A DNA stretch of 64,000 nt, from NCBI RefSeq assembly GCF_026341855.1, contig NZ_JAPENW010000001.1, positions 4,827,001 to 4,891,000 on the forward strand, written 5' to 3'. Position 1 is the stretch's first letter, and every line of letters begins with the position of its first letter. Both the position numbers and the translations under genes were made by a program. Source of the DNA: Streptomyces sp. NBC_00568. GTDB taxonomy: Bacteria > Actinomycetota > Actinomycetes > Streptomycetales > Streptomycetaceae. The notes below the pieces were generated by a model. That model saw nothing but the letters and a program-made list of their open reading frames with translations. It did not search any database and had not been told where the DNA came from. Shown here in pieces: positions 27,309 through 53,119 of this stretch.

Positions 27309-27634
27309 TGTCCGCGGTGCCGGCGGGCGGGTGGGGGCCGAGCCGGCGGTAACGGCTGCGACGGTCAAGGCGTCGGGTCCGTCGCGATCGCGACGGACCC
27401 GACGCCTTGCGTCCTGGCCGACCGCGAGCGGCCGTGCACGGGCCTCAGTGCAACGTGAGCCAGCGCGCCGTGCGGACCATGAGGCCGGTCACCGCTCTGG
27501 TGGGCAGGGCCGGATCTCGATGAGGCGACGACGACCACGGTTTTCAAGACCGTGTACCACTTGATTCGCTCGAGCCTGCAGTCCTCGGCGGTGGCCGTCA
27601 GGGACGGCCGCCCCGAACCTTCCCAGCGGAGGGG
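27309..27634. other. spacer with a second tRNA-Ser-like anticodon arm
   Basis: At 27537-27553 ACGGTTTTCAAGACCGT repeats exactly the anticodon arm of the fragment at 25998-26014; on the minus strand it is preceded by AAGTGGTAC, like a D-loop, and followed by a degenerate T-arm-like stretch ending CCCACCA. No gene is visible. Confidence 0.5.
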
Positions 27635-49483: not shown

Positions 49484-50065
49484 TTGATCAGCTTCAGCGT
49501 GATGGCGCTCGTCTTCGGTGTCGTCTTCCTTGCCGAACTGCCGGACAAGACCGCCCTCGCCGGCCTCGTCCTCGGCACGCGCTACCGCGCCTCGTACGTC
49601 TTCGCCGGTGTCGCCGCCGCGTTCGCCGTCCATGTGACGCTCGCCGTCGCGGCGGGCAGTGTGCTGACGCTGCTGCCGCAGCAGATCGTGCACGCCGTCA
49701 CTGGTGTGCTGTTTCTCGGCGGGGCCGCGGTGCTGCTGATGAAGAAGGACGAGGACGAGGGGGAGATCCGCAAGCCGGAGAACCAGAGCTTCTGGAAGGT
49801 CTCCGGGGCGGGCTTCATGCTCATCCTCGTCGCCGAGTTCGGCGACCTCACGCAGATCATGACGGCGAACCTCGCCGCGCGGTACGACGATCCGCTGTCG
49901 GTGGGGCTCGGTGCGGTGCTGGCGCTGTGGGCTGTCGCGGGGCTGGGGATCGTGGGCGGCAAGGCGCTGATGAAGCGGGTGCCGTTGTCGTTGATCACCA
50001 AGGTGGCGGCGGTGCTGATGCTGGGGCTGGGGGTCTGGAGCCTGTACGAGGCTGTCGCGGGCTGA
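49484..50065 (+). CDS. TMEM165/GDT1 (UPF0016) manganese/calcium transporter
   Basis: A 193-residue membrane protein with six helices and both family signatures: FLAELPDKTALAGLVLGTRY (ExGDK-type) near residue 16 and LVAEFGDLTQIMTANLAARY near 122. UPF0016 proteins export Mn2+ or exchange Ca2+/Mn2+ for H+. TTG 49484 follows GAGGAAT. The manganese riboswitch upstream fits a role in Mn2+ export. Confidence 0.92.
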   Translation: MISFSVMALVFGVVFLAELPDKTALAGLVLGTRYRASYVFAGVAAAFAVHVTLAVAAGSVLTLLPQQIVHAVTGVLFLGGAAVLLMKKDEDEGEIRKPENQSFWKVSGAGFMLILVAEFGDLTQIMTANLAARYDDPLSVGLGAVLALWAVAGLGIVGGKALMKRVPLSLITKVAAVLMLGLGVWSLYEAVAG

Positions 50066-50678
50066 GCCCGGCGGGGTCGCTGGCGCTGGCGTTCCGGGTG
50101 TGGGTCCGGTGTCCGGCCGGCCACCGGACAGCTGGGTCGGGTGCCGGTCAGCTGGGTCGGGTGCTGGTCCGGTGGGTGGGTCGGGGCCGTGCCGGTACAT
50201 CCCAGTCCGTCGCCGCTGGATCAGACGTGGGCTACCTGTGCGAACCGCTGCTCGATCCGAACGTAAGCGACGGACATAGGGATGTACCGGCACGGCCCCT
50301 CCCGTGCGCCGCCGACTGCGGGTGCTTCGTGGTGTGGGAGATGTCCCGCCCGCGATGTAAGGCCCCTGCTGTGTGTGGACGGGGGTGGGTGCTTCGTGGC
50401 TCGGGGGGCGTCTCGCTCGCGAGGTGTGGCGCCTGTCGTGCGCTGTGGTTGCGGGTGCTGCGTGGCTTGGAGGTTGTCGTCCCGCCCATGCGTTCATCTC
50501 GTCCGTTTCAAGCGTTTCGACCATTTCGTGTGCAGGGGGTGGTGGCGCTGGGGGAGGTAGTTTTGTATGTTGTAGGAACAAAGTGGCTCCCGCCCGCACA
50601 TCCCTGACCGGCGGGCGGGGCCGCCTTGTTTCCCGGGGGGCATGTTGGACCTCCCTATCTGCGCCTTGGAGCATGCCG
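50066..50678. other. 613-bp spacer with hairpin element and leader
   Basis: No gene. It contains the first candidate MITE (50183-50299) and, before the HAD gene, a hairpin region CCCGCC...GGCGGG near 50591-50618 followed by GGGGCC, perhaps the end of the upstream transcript. Confidence 0.6.
50183..50299. mobile_element. candidate MITE, copy 1 (117 bp)
   Basis: Terminal inverted repeats of at least 21 bp (GGGGCCGTGCCGGTACATCC... and its complement), plus inner arms GTCCGTCGC and GCGACGGAC, so the whole element can form a hairpin. No coding capacity. A near-identical copy lies at 51532-51649 in opposite orientation. Confidence 0.75.
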
Positions 50679-51341
50679 ATGACGACGGCCATCACCGTTC
50701 TGACCGCCCGCGCCTTCCTGCTCGACATGGACGGCACCCTCGTCAACTCGGACGTCGTCGTCGAGCGCTGCTGGCGCGGCTGGGCCGACCGGCACGGGCT
50801 GGACGGGGACGAGGTCATGAAGGTCGTCCACGGCAGGCAGGGGTACGCGTCGATGGCGGTCCTGCTGCCGGACCGGCCCATGGAGCAGAACTACGCGGAC
50901 AACGCGCGGATGCTGGCCGAGGAGACCGCCGACATGGACGGCGTCGTCGCGATTCCGGGAGCGCCGGAGTTCCTCGCCTCCCTCGCCGGAGTGCCGCACG
51001 CGCTCGTCACCTCCGCGGACGTGGCGCTGTCGACCGGGCGGATGGCCGCGGCCGGGCTCGGACTTCCCGACGTGCGTGTCACCGCCGAGTCGGTCGGTGC
51101 CAGCAAGCCCGACCCCGCGGGCTTCCTGAAGGGCGCGGCCGAGCTGGGCGTCGCGCCCGAGGACTGTGTCGTGTTCGAGGACTCCGGGGCGGGGATCGCG
51201 GCGGGGCGGGCCGCCGGTATGAGGGTCGTCGGGGTCGGTCCTCGGGCGGGATTCCACGGGCCGGATGTCCTTGTACGGGACCTGACCGAGGTACGGGTCG
51301 AGGCCCTCGCGGACGGGACAGTTCGCCTTCACATCGGCTGA
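50679..51341 (+). CDS. HAD-superfamily phosphatase (GPP/phosphoglycolate-type)
   Basis: A 220-residue HAD subfamily IA hydrolase. Motif I FLLDMDGTLVNSD (residues 13-25), motif II PHALVTSADVAL, Lys in GASKPDPAGFLKGA and motif IV VVFEDSGAGIAAGRAAGM. Helical cap after motif I (subfamily IA). Probably dephosphorylates a sugar or glycerol phosphate. ATG 50679 follows GGAG; ATG 50673 two codons earlier is possible. Flanked on both sides by the hairpin repeats. Confidence 0.9.
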   Translation: MTTAITVLTARAFLLDMDGTLVNSDVVVERCWRGWADRHGLDGDEVMKVVHGRQGYASMAVLLPDRPMEQNYADNARMLAEETADMDGVVAIPGAPEFLASLAGVPHALVTSADVALSTGRMAAAGLGLPDVRVTAESVGASKPDPAGFLKGAAELGVAPEDCVVFEDSGAGIAAGRAAGMRVVGVGPRAGFHGPDVLVRDLTEVRVEALADGTVRLHIG

Positions 51342-51531
51342 GGGCTGACCTTCGCATCGACTGAGTCGCCGGGCGGGGAGGGGGCTGGGGCGGGGATTCT
51401 CGCCCCCTCCGCCCCTACCCGACCCGTACCCGGGGCTCCGCCCCGGACCCCGCTCCTCAAACGCCGGAGGGGCTGAAACCGGAGGGGCTGGATCTTCGCC
51501 ACGTGCGACCCGCAGCCGGGATGCGGCGGGA
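51342..51531. other. spacer with Streptomyces-type hairpin
   Basis: Contains CCGGGGCTCCGCCCCGG near 51432-51448 and CTCAAACGCCGGAGGGGCTG near 51456, a motif that recurs between genes in Streptomyces, probably a terminator. Confidence 0.5.
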
Positions 51532-51649
51532 GGGGCCGTGCCGGTACATCCCGAATGTCCGTCGCTTACGTTCGGATCGAGCAGCAGTTCGCACAGATAG
51601 CCCACGTCTGATCCAGCGGCGACGGACTGGGATGTACCGGCACGGCCCC
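51532..51649. mobile_element. candidate MITE, copy 2 (118 bp, inverted)
   Basis: Reverse-complement copy of 50183-50299 with only about four differences. Flanking bases outside the terminal repeats are also alike, so similarity extends about 15 bp further on each side. Confidence 0.75.
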
Positions 51650-51681
51650 GACCCACCCACCGGACCCAGGCCCGACGCCGG

Positions 51682-52953
51682 TCACGGCTCGGTCGTCTCC
51701 GCCTCCAGGCTTGCCCGGGTGGCGGTGCCGTAGACCCCCGGCTCGTCACCCGAGATGCCCCGCGCCCACTGGTACCAGCGCACCGCGTCCTCGAGGCGGC
51801 GGTCGAACCGGCCGTCGGCGTTGCGCATGTACATCCTCAGCTGGGTCATCCGCAGCTGGAGTTCGGTCACCTCGGGGCCGCTGTCGCCGCGTCGCAGGGT
51901 CTGCGCTGACACGCCGTTCGAACCGCTGCCCGTGGACGCCACCGATCCCGTCGGGGTCGCCTTCGCGCTCGGGGACGTGGACGCGGGTGCCGACGTGGCC
52001 GACCGGGACGGTGATGCCGAGGTGTCGGACTCGGACGCCGACGGCGACGGGCTCGCGCTCAGGGAGGAGGCCGGAGCCGACGGCGCCGAGGACGTGGCGG
52101 ACGTGCTCGCGGACGGCGACCCCGAGGTCTTGTCGGACAGCACCTCCGGCGCGCTCGCGCGGACGTCCTTCGGCAGTGCGCCGTCCCGCGCGGGAGTGTC
52201 GTACGACAGCAGTCCGCTCGCGAACCCCGCCGCGGCCACCATCGTGACCACGACTCCGGCGACGGCGATGACCCCGGTTCGCCGGCCGCGCCCCGGCCGA
52301 TCGGAGGCAGGGGCCCCCGATCCGGGCTCGGGGGAGCGGTCCTGGAAGAGGCGGACGTCGGTGGCCCGCGCCTCCGACGGAAGTGCCTTCAGCCGCATGG
52401 TCGCGTCGGCGGGAACCGTGGCCGGTCCCCTGGTCGCGTCGGCCGGAACGGCGTTCAGCCGCATCGTCGCGTCGGCCGGAACGGCGTTCAGCCGCATGGT
52501 GGAAGAGGCGGCGTCCTCTCCGTTCGCCGGCGGCATCGGTATCCCGCCCGCCGGCGTGACCCCGTTCGGCCACGTGTCGTCGCCGTTCACCGGCGCCGTG
52601 CCGTGCGGAGGCGCTCCAGGGCCGTCCAGCGGCGTGGAGGCGCCCTCCGGGGCCCAGGAGCCCGCCTCTGCGGTCCAGGCGGCGGGGCCGGGGTCGCCCG
52701 GGGCCGCCTGGTCCGGATGCCCCGCGTTCGCACCGGGCAACTGGCCCCCTCCGGGATGCCCGGAACGCTCCGGGCCCAGCTCCACGTAGGGCCGGATGCG
52801 CAGCGGGTTGAAGTCCTCCGTCGCCGCGGCCTCCGCCGTGCGCGCGTCACGCAGGGCGTCGGACGCCCTGCTGGTGCAGGCGCAGGACGGGGTGCCGTCC
52901 TGCGCCCGGTGTGCGGCGCACTCGGGGCAGACATGCCCGGTCGGTTCAGTCAC
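51682..52953 (-). CDS. membrane-anchored peptidoglycan-binding protein
   Basis: A 423-residue protein. The N-terminus has a zinc-ribbon-like start ([25 protein letters not shown]). A Pro/Ala-rich part includes three [11 protein letters not shown]-type repeats, then a membrane helix near 228-250 ([22 protein letters not shown]), a Ser/Thr/Ala-rich linker and a C-terminal peptidoglycan-binding domain ([48 protein letters not shown]). It probably links the cytoplasmic zinc ribbon to the cell wall. GTG 52953 follows GAGGGA. Confidence 0.85.
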
Positions 52954-53119
52954 GAGTGGGTCCCTCCCCCTGAGATTTCCAGAGATTATCCGGACGACCT
53001 TCATACAACCTTCAAGCAGCCCCCCGGAATCCAGGATTCCGGTCGGTTCGACAGGCCATAACCGGACACACCGATCAGGATGGAGGGTGACCGGGACCCT
53101 CGGGGCTCAGGGAGGCCGC

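What the first reader, a model, noticed from the sequence alone, without database searches (positions are those of the whole stretch)
50183..51649. Pair of inverted MITE-like hairpin elements flanking a HAD phosphatase
Two 117-118-bp elements with 21-bp terminal inverted repeats and inner complementary arms are near-identical (about four differences) and lie in opposite orientation around one gene. The arrangement resembles a composite unit that could mobilise the gene or let the region invert; homology extends beyond the terminal repeats. I know of no name for this element.
Basis: seen in the sequence. Interest (0 to 1): 0.65.

Follow-up and report, generated by a model that had tools for sequence, protein, structure and literature searches.

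The report
Self-homogenising hairpin repeats in Streptomyces
The two mirror-image hairpins beside one gene belong to a family of short DNA hairpins that sit just after genes in many Streptomyces chromosomes; they stay at the same places between species, yet copies within one genome come to look alike, so they do not appear to be a device that moves or flips that gene.

Summary
In detail: two hairpins (50183-50299 and 51532-51649) with perfect 21-bp inverted arms, 3 substitutions and 1 indel apart, in opposite orientation around a HAD gene. The composite or invertible unit is not supported: the same pair, in the same order and orientation, flanks the orthologous HAD gene in four other Streptomyces genomes.

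The host genome holds 21 copies. A covariance model finds the family in 40 of 295 Streptomyces genomes. No other genus was hit in the scans made. Copies are intergenic, mostly tens of bases after a stop codon.

Many sites are shared between species, but sequences follow the genome. At 82-86% flank identity, copies at orthologous sites are no more alike on average (0.806) than copies at different sites (0.803), while paralogs in G000 are 0.94 alike. A tree groups copies by species, not by site. Copies in two of six genomes tested are clearly mosaic. This is concerted evolution, most simply by gene conversion. No REP-associated transposase reaches cut-off in 16 carriers, and no longer element with these ends was seen in three genomes. 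A transcript-end role is inferred only.

The parts
50183..50299 (+). Hairpin element copy 1 (117 bp), GTGGGTC side towards GDT1 gene 3' end
   Evidence: CM R1 hit at G000:C4:4877171-4877307
50183..50203 (+). Copy 1 outer left arm, 21 bp
   Evidence: (I3)
50279..50299 (+). Copy 1 outer right arm, 21 bp
   Evidence: (I3)
50205..50213 (+). Copy 1 inner arm GTCCGTCGC
   Evidence: read; pairs in fold
50267..50275 (+). Copy 1 inner arm GCGACGGAC
   Evidence: read; pairs in fold
50166..50182 (+). Constant left flank of the repeated unit (GGTCCGGTGGGTGGGTC)
   Evidence: shared, with variations, by most of the 21 copies; inverted run 50166-50202 / 51630-51666
50300..50324 (+). Right flank of the unit (TCCCGTGCG..CTGCGGGTG), partly homogenised within the genome
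   Evidence: R25 identity 0.82 within G000 against 0.68-0.74 for G000 orthologs in other species
51532..51649 (-). Hairpin element copy 2 (118 bp), GTGGGTC side towards PG-binding gene 3' end
   Evidence: CM R1 hit G000:C4:4878524-4878661 minus
51532..51552 (-). Copy 2 outer arm, 21 bp
   Evidence: (I4)
51629..51649 (-). Copy 2 outer arm, 21 bp
   Evidence: (I4)
51557..51565 (-). Copy 2 inner arm
   Evidence: read
51619..51627 (-). Copy 2 inner arm
   Evidence: read
51650..51666 (-). Constant GTGGGTC-side flank of copy 2
51507..51531 (-). TCCCG-side flank of copy 2
49484..50065 (+). GDT1-family cation/proton antiporter gene; stop codon 117 bp before copy 1
   Evidence: PF01169 7.2e-37
50658..51341 (+). 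HAD-family hydrolase gene between the two copies (start codon uncertain)
   Evidence: PF00702 7.2e-23, PF13419 1.7e-19
51682..53004 (-). Gene with peptidoglycan-binding domain; stop codon 32 bp before copy 2
   Evidence: PF01471 3.5e-09

Best explanation
The two hairpins are members of a dispersed intergenic repeat family of Streptomyces: a unit of about 160 bp made of a G-rich left flank (..GTGGGTC), a DNA palindrome (86-124 bp in the set; about 19-21 bp outer arms, inner arms mostly 9-10 bp, variable loop) and about 25 bp of right flank. SHOWN: it sits between genes, mostly tens of bases after a stop codon and in a preferred orientation; many sites are shared between species; in the well-sampled genomes copies resemble one another, and at about 15% flank divergence they keep on average no memory of which site they are orthologous to; copies in at least two genomes are mosaics. 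INFERRED: old, vertically inherited sites are rewritten from one another by gene-conversion-like copying. A plausible start is breakage or stalling at the extruded palindrome with repair from another copy. The arms stay identical because the hairpin itself is the object copied or corrected. INFERRED, weaker: sitting at transcript ends, the hairpin acts there as a terminator or a 3'-end stabiliser, which keeps the sites. The pair around the HAD gene is two such transcript-end copies belonging to two neighbouring genes, not a mobile or invertible unit.
For: Family: 21 places in the own genome (loop-blind arm pattern); 74 loci, all Streptomyces, in the genome collection; 40 of 295 genus genomes. 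Position: of 143 elements none lies wholly inside a called gene; of 134 with a gene called on both sides, 61 tandem with the 3' end at the GTGGGTC side, 26 tandem the other way, 43 convergent, 4 divergent, against 128 tandem, 122 divergent and 33 convergent in other gaps of 150 bp or more of the same loci. Shared sites: 16 of 21 G000 copies, 15 of them by both flanks; 11 of 13 M41 and 11 of 12 G208 copies held are at G000 sites (5 and 9 by both flanks). Concerted evolution: flanks 82-86% alike, 48 ortholog pairs at 0.806 against 0.803 non-orthologous; within G000 0.94. Tree: species label 28 changes (shuffles 75-90, 0 of 200 as low); site label 63 (shuffle mean 63.9, 77 of 200 as low; shuffled within species mean 64.4, 44 of 200). 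Mosaics: PHI 0 of 2000 permutations as low in G000 and M41, p 0.05 in NBC_00620. DNA-level symmetry: 53 two-sided and 2 G-U cells of 1053; arm position 17 is A-T in 99, G-C in 43, asymmetric in 1 of 143.
Against: Conversion was not seen happening; repeated insertion at preferred sites could mimic it, and 5 of 21 G000 copies have no orthologous copy in the loci held. The PHI test was not significant in S. albiflavescens (0.21) and G040 (0.23) and borderline in G208 (0.06). Orthologs do beat non-orthologs by more than 0.02 in 42 of 111 pairs, 13 of 48 of them in the 82-86% bin; S. albiflavescens against G040 (93% flanks) has 0.941 against 0.854 (n=6), and G109 against dioscori, tauricus, apricus and BV286 (87-91% flanks) 0.87-0.92 against 0.80-0.82 (5 pairs). 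Not every genome is homogeneous: G024 0.72, G109 0.81, BV286 0.83, albiflavescens 0.84 within. No termination or RNA data were available. The right flank has no U-run of the classical kind.
Confidence: 0.6

Rival explanations
1. A non-autonomous mobile element (MITE- or REPIN-like) that repeatedly inserts at the same preferred sites, such as terminator hairpins after genes, with old copies lost and replaced by the current lineage type.
For: Near-identical copies within genomes and lineage-specific subfamilies; patchy presence at one site: element after the parE-like gene in 7 of 29 assessable genomes; G024 looks like an empty site at the HAD locus, with flank-like motifs kept (by eye); G095 has a plain GC-rich hairpin after parE instead (by eye).
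Against: Would need the same target to be chosen again in most cases (11 of 13 M41 copies at G000 sites); no target duplication seen; no longer element with the same ends: in G000, G040 and G208 exact and one-mismatch arms pair at 81-97 bp start to start, apart from a lone arm in G000 and an extra arm in G208; no flank-only target in G000; mosaics within the unit; no transposase-like family recurring beside the sites.
Confidence: 0.23
2. True REPINs moved by a RAYT transposase.
For: Same architecture: two conserved inverted ends, variable spacer, extragenic, compensatory changes (REPIN features in passages of PMC3116915).
Against: RAYT model NF047646 reaches its cut-off in 0 of 16 carrier genomes, with weaker matches in 5; carriers G109, G207, G239, G262 and G032 are not among the 99 genomes with a Y1_Tnp match; the two Y1 proteins of G000 are IS200/IS605 TnpA (NF033573, 1e-43 and 2.7e-41).
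Confidence: 0.05
3. A conserved structured RNA (terminator, riboregulator or 3'-UTR stabiliser) under selection as RNA, with species-specific sequence chosen by a co-evolving protein.
For: Placement after stop codons with an orientation preference; strong folding; compensatory pairs.
Against: Two-sided changes almost without G-U intermediates; mismatches show no clear wobble excess (outer stem G-T 17, A-C 11, other 28; inner stem G-T 0, A-C 3, other 6); the loop is homogenised within G000 too (loop 0.89 within against 0.75 for G000-M41 orthologs); no Rfam match.
Confidence: 0.1
4. One reading: two inverted copies that mobilise or invert the HAD gene.
For: Inverted arrangement.
Against: Same gene order and orientation in all six loci compared, five with the pair; the HAD gene is present without hairpins in 28 of the 30 best HAD loci (two of the 30 cut short).
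Confidence: 0.01

Closest known systems
REPIN (REP doublet forming hairpin) with RAYT
   Same: Two conserved inverted ends, variable spacer, extragenic, lineage-specific sequence populations, compensatory changes between arms (passages of PMC3116915 and PMC8049555)
   Different: No RAYT over cut-off in 16 carriers; copies counted here 21 in G000, 30 arm pairs in G040, 16 in G208; many sites shared between species while sequence tracks the genome
ERIC / intergenic repeat unit of enterobacteria (recalled)
   Same: About 120-bp imperfect palindrome between genes, no known transposase, in transcribed regions
   Different: Sequence not compared by any search; here a near-perfect 19-21 bp outer palindrome and lineage-specific loops
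E. coli REP/BIME and Higgins et al. 1988 'evolution by gene conversion?' (title seen in a reference list; otherwise recalled)
   Same: Palindromes after genes; gene conversion proposed for their upkeep
   Different: Here the proposal has cross-species evidence: shared sites with little or no orthology signal
MITE
   Same: Short, non-coding, terminal-looking inverted repeats, many near-identical copies
   Different: No target duplication seen, asymmetric flanks belong to the unit, no long partner element in three genomes
U-lacking (I-shaped) GC-rich terminator, S. clavuligerus Term-seq (passages of PMC8269248)
   Same: Strong GC hairpin after genes without a U-run
   Different: Far longer loop and a repeated, homogenised sequence

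Membership tests
MITE | Terminal inverted repeats | tested here: inconclusive
   21-bp arms perfect, but the repeated unit extends past them
MITE | Target site duplication | tested here: not met
   By eye, no direct repeat abuts the arms in the 21 copies; flanks are constant and asymmetric
MITE | Autonomous partner with the same ends | tested here: not met
   In G000, G040 and G208 exact and one-mismatch arms pair only at short spacing, apart from a lone or extra arm (the G040 list was cut within the three-mismatch rows); other genomes not tested
REPIN | Two inverted conserved ends with hairpin-forming spacer in extragenic space | tested here: met
REPIN | Cognate RAYT transposase in the genome | tested here: not met
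   NF047646 over cut-off in 0 of 16 carriers; weak sub-cut-off matches in 5; G000 Y1 proteins are IS200
Structured RNA family | Match to a known Rfam family | tested here: not met
   3 matches at E up to 1 in window 49500-52500, E 0.2 to 0.98, below gathering score and outside the hairpins
Structured RNA family | Wobble-tolerant covariation | tested here: not met
   53 two-sided against 2 one-sided cells of 1053; the exact 12-base arm pattern favours paired outer arms in part of the set
Composite transposon or invertible segment | Segment moves or inverts between strains | tested here: not met
   Order and orientation constant in 6 of 6 loci compared
Intrinsic terminator | GC hairpin at gene 3' end | tested here: met
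   104 of 134 have a gene 3' end on the GTGGGTC side; median 59.5 bp
Intrinsic terminator | Transcripts end there | not testable with these tools
   No RNA data
Concerted evolution by gene conversion | Paralogs within a species closer than orthologs at conserved sites | tested here: met
   met for G000, M41, NBC_00620 and albicerus against distant species; not for G024
Concerted evolution by gene conversion | Mosaic copies | tested here: met
   PHI: G000 and M41 0 of 2000 permutations as low; NBC_00620 0.05, G208 0.06; not significant in albiflavescens and G040

The most novel reading that the evidence does not exclude
A transposase-free selfish or structural DNA hairpin that spreads its sequence by biased conversion into copies already present ('conversion drive'): the palindrome provokes its own breakage or stalling and is rewritten, both arms at once, from sister copies across the chromosome, so that sites are inherited vertically but the sequence sweeps through the genome.
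Probability: 0.2. Interest if true: 0.85.

Novelty: new variant of a known kind. Interest (0 to 1): 0.6.

Why it matters
Whether bacterial extragenic palindromes persist by transposition or by gene conversion has been asked since the REP sequences of E. coli. Here is a family with sites shared between species, lineage-specific sequence, measurable mosaics and no detectable REP transposase, in genetically tractable soil bacteria. It offers a direct test of concerted evolution among very short dispersed repeats. It also warns that near-identical inverted repeats around a gene are not evidence of mobility.

Tried and rejected
Composite mobile or invertible unit: rejected by constant gene order.

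RAYT/IS200 partner: Y1_Tnp matches in 99 of 295 genus genomes, including 11 of the 16 genomes with six or more hits (one of them, G068, only at 2.2e-4). This is higher than the background, but 5 of the 16 are absent from that list, the two G000 proteins are ordinary IS200 TnpA, and RAYT is under cut-off in all 16. The excess is unexplained and may follow genome size or kinship.

Autonomous partner with the same ends: none in three genomes. Flank-only target: none in G000; 1 match in 7 genomes, in G040, that reads like chance. Shared neighbour gene: at most 5 same-genome paralogs near other sites, not identified further; nine genes at or near the sites run through Pfam show no common theme. Rfam: nothing credible. 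IMG/VR viral contigs: 0. Right-hand repeat module CTGCGGGTGCGTGGGGGCTTGG with up to 3 mismatches: 9 places in G000, 7 of them beside the hairpin (backward control 2).

Literature: searches (by arm sequence, 0 papers) listed no description of the family; this covers only the open-licence PMC library. Papers seen as passages only: PMC3116915, PMC8049555, PMC8269248, PMC2267715, PMC1590033. The others were seen as search listings.

Rows dropped before counts: of 75 pattern matches in 74 loci, 69 were used and 6 lay within 20 bases of a locus end. Nine earlier loci were replaced by longer or re-called versions. Nine of 143 elements had no gene called on one side. For G040, G208, G024, G236, G109, G128, G239 only part of the copies were fetched. 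The parE count leaves out G032 (locus cut); the other 29 loci were run with the model. Labels albiflavescens/G212 and populi/G221 share identical flanks and one identical element each and are probably the same genomes, so 2 of the 7 pairs in the 97% bin are probably self-comparisons and at least 2 of the 143 elements are duplicates; G212 and G221 are not in the tree. Gene calls are my own crude codon-score caller, and orthologous loci are not independent.

Full report
OBSERVATION. Two elements, 50183-50299 and 51532-51649, lie in opposite orientation around a HAD hydrolase gene. Each has perfect 21-bp outer arms and 9-bp inner arms. They differ by 3 substitutions and 1 indel. The fold of one strand is far stronger than that of shuffles (z -9.8).

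COPIES. In the own genome (G000) BLAST finds 21 full-length or nearly full-length places. A loop-blind arm pattern with up to 3 mismatches finds both arms of 20 of them and one arm of the 21st (whose other arm has a deletion), no further pair at hairpin spacing, one lone exact arm at C4:3438583 and three single three-mismatch sites. The similarity between copies is therefore not an effect of searching with the window's loop. The copies carry constant, asymmetric flanks with small variations (left GGTCCGGTGGGTGGGTC, right TCCCG..CTGCGGGT) and no target duplication that I can see at the arm ends. Further right the sequence breaks into other intergenic repeat modules that differ from site to site.

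DISTRIBUTION. A pattern of two 12-base arms 58-88 bases apart hits 74 loci in the collection of one genome per species, all Streptomyces, and none in viral contigs. A covariance model from 39 diverse copies finds 40 of 295 genus genomes; only 11 candidates per genome were scored, so counts are floors. Across 245 genomes of the order, 21 have hits, all in this genus, 1 of 8 genera. By arms with at most a few mismatches, G040 holds 30 pairs and G208 16; spacing start to start is 81-94 in these two and 95-97 in G000.

STRUCTURE. Of 27 consensus pairs, 6 show two-sided changes; 53 cells are two-sided, 2 are G-U, and 98.8% of 1053 cells are paired (slid controls 30-41%). Arm position 17, left free by the search pattern, is A-T in 99 and G-C in 43 of 143 copies, with 1 asymmetric copy, which has a deletion in the arm. 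Perfect 19-bp arms are found in 107 of 143. Mismatches show no clear wobble excess (outer stem G-T 17, A-C 11, other 28, eight of these 56 from the one copy with a deletion; inner G-T 0, A-C 3, other 6). This looks like symmetry kept in DNA rather than an RNA helix. The pattern required exact 12-base arms, which biases the outer-arm counts for that part of the set, but not the inner stem.

POSITION. With my own gene caller, none of 143 elements lies wholly inside a gene. Of 134 with genes on both sides, 61 are tandem with the 3' end at the GTGGGTC side, 26 tandem the other way, 43 convergent and 4 divergent. Other gaps of 150 bp or more in the same loci are 128 tandem, 122 divergent and 33 convergent. 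The median distance from a stop codon to the GTGGGTC side is 59.5 bp (n=104). In G000 alone 16 of 21 copies have a gene's 3' end on that side.

SHARED SITES, UNSHARED SEQUENCE. In the first set of loci 15 of 21 G000 copies have a copy at the orthologous site, in the same orientation, in another species; in the larger set 16 of 21, 15 of them by both flanks. 11 of 13 M41 copies and 11 of 12 G208 copies held are at G000 sites, 5 and 9 of them by both flanks. Yet G000-M41 orthologs are 0.84 alike and non-orthologs 0.84, while G000 paralogs are 0.94; loops 0.75, 0.73 and 0.89. Over 111 ortholog pairs by both flanks: flanks under 82%, 0.817 against 0.814 (n=10); 82-86%, 0.806 against 0.803 (n=48); 86-90%, 0.822 against 0.811 (n=26); 90-93%, 0.851 against 0.796 (n=10); 93-97%, 0.906 against 0.849 (n=10); 97% and above, 0.957 against 0.888 (n=7, two of them probably the same genome twice). 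So site memory is kept at short distance and on average gone at about 15% divergence. The pace differs: in M41 against G208 (96.5%) it is already gone (0.926 against 0.922, n=7); in S. albiflavescens against G040 (93.1%) it persists (0.941 against 0.854, n=6), and also between G109 and dioscori, tauricus, apricus and BV286 (87-91%; 5 pairs). In all, 42 of 111 pairs are more alike than their non-orthologous mean by over 0.02. Within-genome likeness is high in albicerus 0.97, G000 0.94, G208 0.93, M41 0.92, NBC_00620 0.90 and G040 0.90, lower in dioscori 0.85, albiflavescens 0.84, G236 0.84, BV286 0.83, G109 0.81 and G024 0.72. On a tree of 117 copies the species label needs 28 changes (shuffles 75-90); the site label on 75 rows needs 63 (shuffle mean 63.9, 77 of 200 as low; shuffled within species 64.4, 44 of 200; distant species only, 34 rows, 30 against 29.8). 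The homogenised tract is the hairpin plus about 25 bp of right flank; segments further out show little or no difference.

MOSAICS. The pairwise homoplasy test on the unit gives 0 of 2000 permutations as low in G000 and M41, p 0.05 in NBC_00620, 0.06 in G208, 0.21 in S. albiflavescens and 0.23 in G040. Centre types and right-flank types reassort in G000.

ONE SITE IN DETAIL. After the parE-like gene (gyrase B domains) the model finds the element in 7 of 29 assessable genomes, in the same orientation, each with a sequence of its own. In G267 the outer arm there is rewritten over several bases and still pairs perfectly. In G221 the copy is decayed, with 5 arm mismatches. G095 has a plain GC-rich hairpin instead (by eye).

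THE HAD PAIR. G000, G040, G208, M41 and S. albiflavescens all carry GDT1 - hairpin - HAD - inverted hairpin - PG-binding gene in the same order and orientation. G024 has the genes without the hairpins, with flank-like motifs left; whether that is loss or a state before insertion is open. In G040 the second copy is of another subfamily (0.64 alike to the window's).

PARTNERS. No RAYT over cut-off in 16 carriers; weaker matches in 5. The Y1 proteins of G000 are IS200/IS605 TnpA. No long element with the same ends in three genomes. No gene family recurring beside more than a few sites.

READING. Vertical inheritance of sites with within-genome rewriting explains shared sites, weak or absent orthology signal, mosaics and two-sided arm changes together. 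Conversion is inferred, not observed. The transcript-end role rests on position only.

KNOWN KINDS. It works most like REPIN, ERIC or REP palindromes. It fails the RAYT test of REPINs and the target-duplication and partner tests of MITEs as far as tested. Higgins et al. 1988 proposed gene conversion for REP sequences (title seen in the reference list of PMC2267715). No description of this family was found in the ten literature searches listed in Tried and rejected.

Noticed in passing
window 50317-50478: Three decayed direct repeats (about 66 bp apart) of the TGCGGGTGCTTCGTGG-type module right of copy 1; the same kind of module follows other copies and sometimes stands in tandem in other genomes (L065).
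   Followed up: partly
window 51430-51475 (minus strand) and right flanks of other G000 copies: A second intergenic repeat (CAGCCCCTCCGGCGTTTGAGGAGCGGGG.., window 51448-51475); its first ten bases or a one-base variant lie within 200 bp right of 17 of 21 copies. It looks like its own widespread module; not counted genome-wide.
   Followed up: partly
window 27366-27409: A 44-bp perfect palindrome (CAAGGCGTCGGGTCCGTCGCGATCGCGACGGACCCGACGCCTTG), unrelated to the finding; possibly a terminator.
   Followed up: no
window 52369-52500: 33-bp repeats inside the 440-aa gene with the peptidoglycan-binding domain.
   Followed up: no
G000:C4:3438583-3438603 (L054): A lone exact 21-bp arm, by eye shortly after a stop codon, without its partner: probably a remnant.
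   Followed up: partly
G208:C1:7063591-7063608: A third arm beside a complete element (7063388-7063496), suggesting partial duplication.
   Followed up: no
genus genomes: IS200-type Y1 transposases are commoner in genomes rich in the hairpin (11 of 16 with six or more hits) than in the sample (99 of 295); cause unknown, possibly genome size or kinship.
   Followed up: partly
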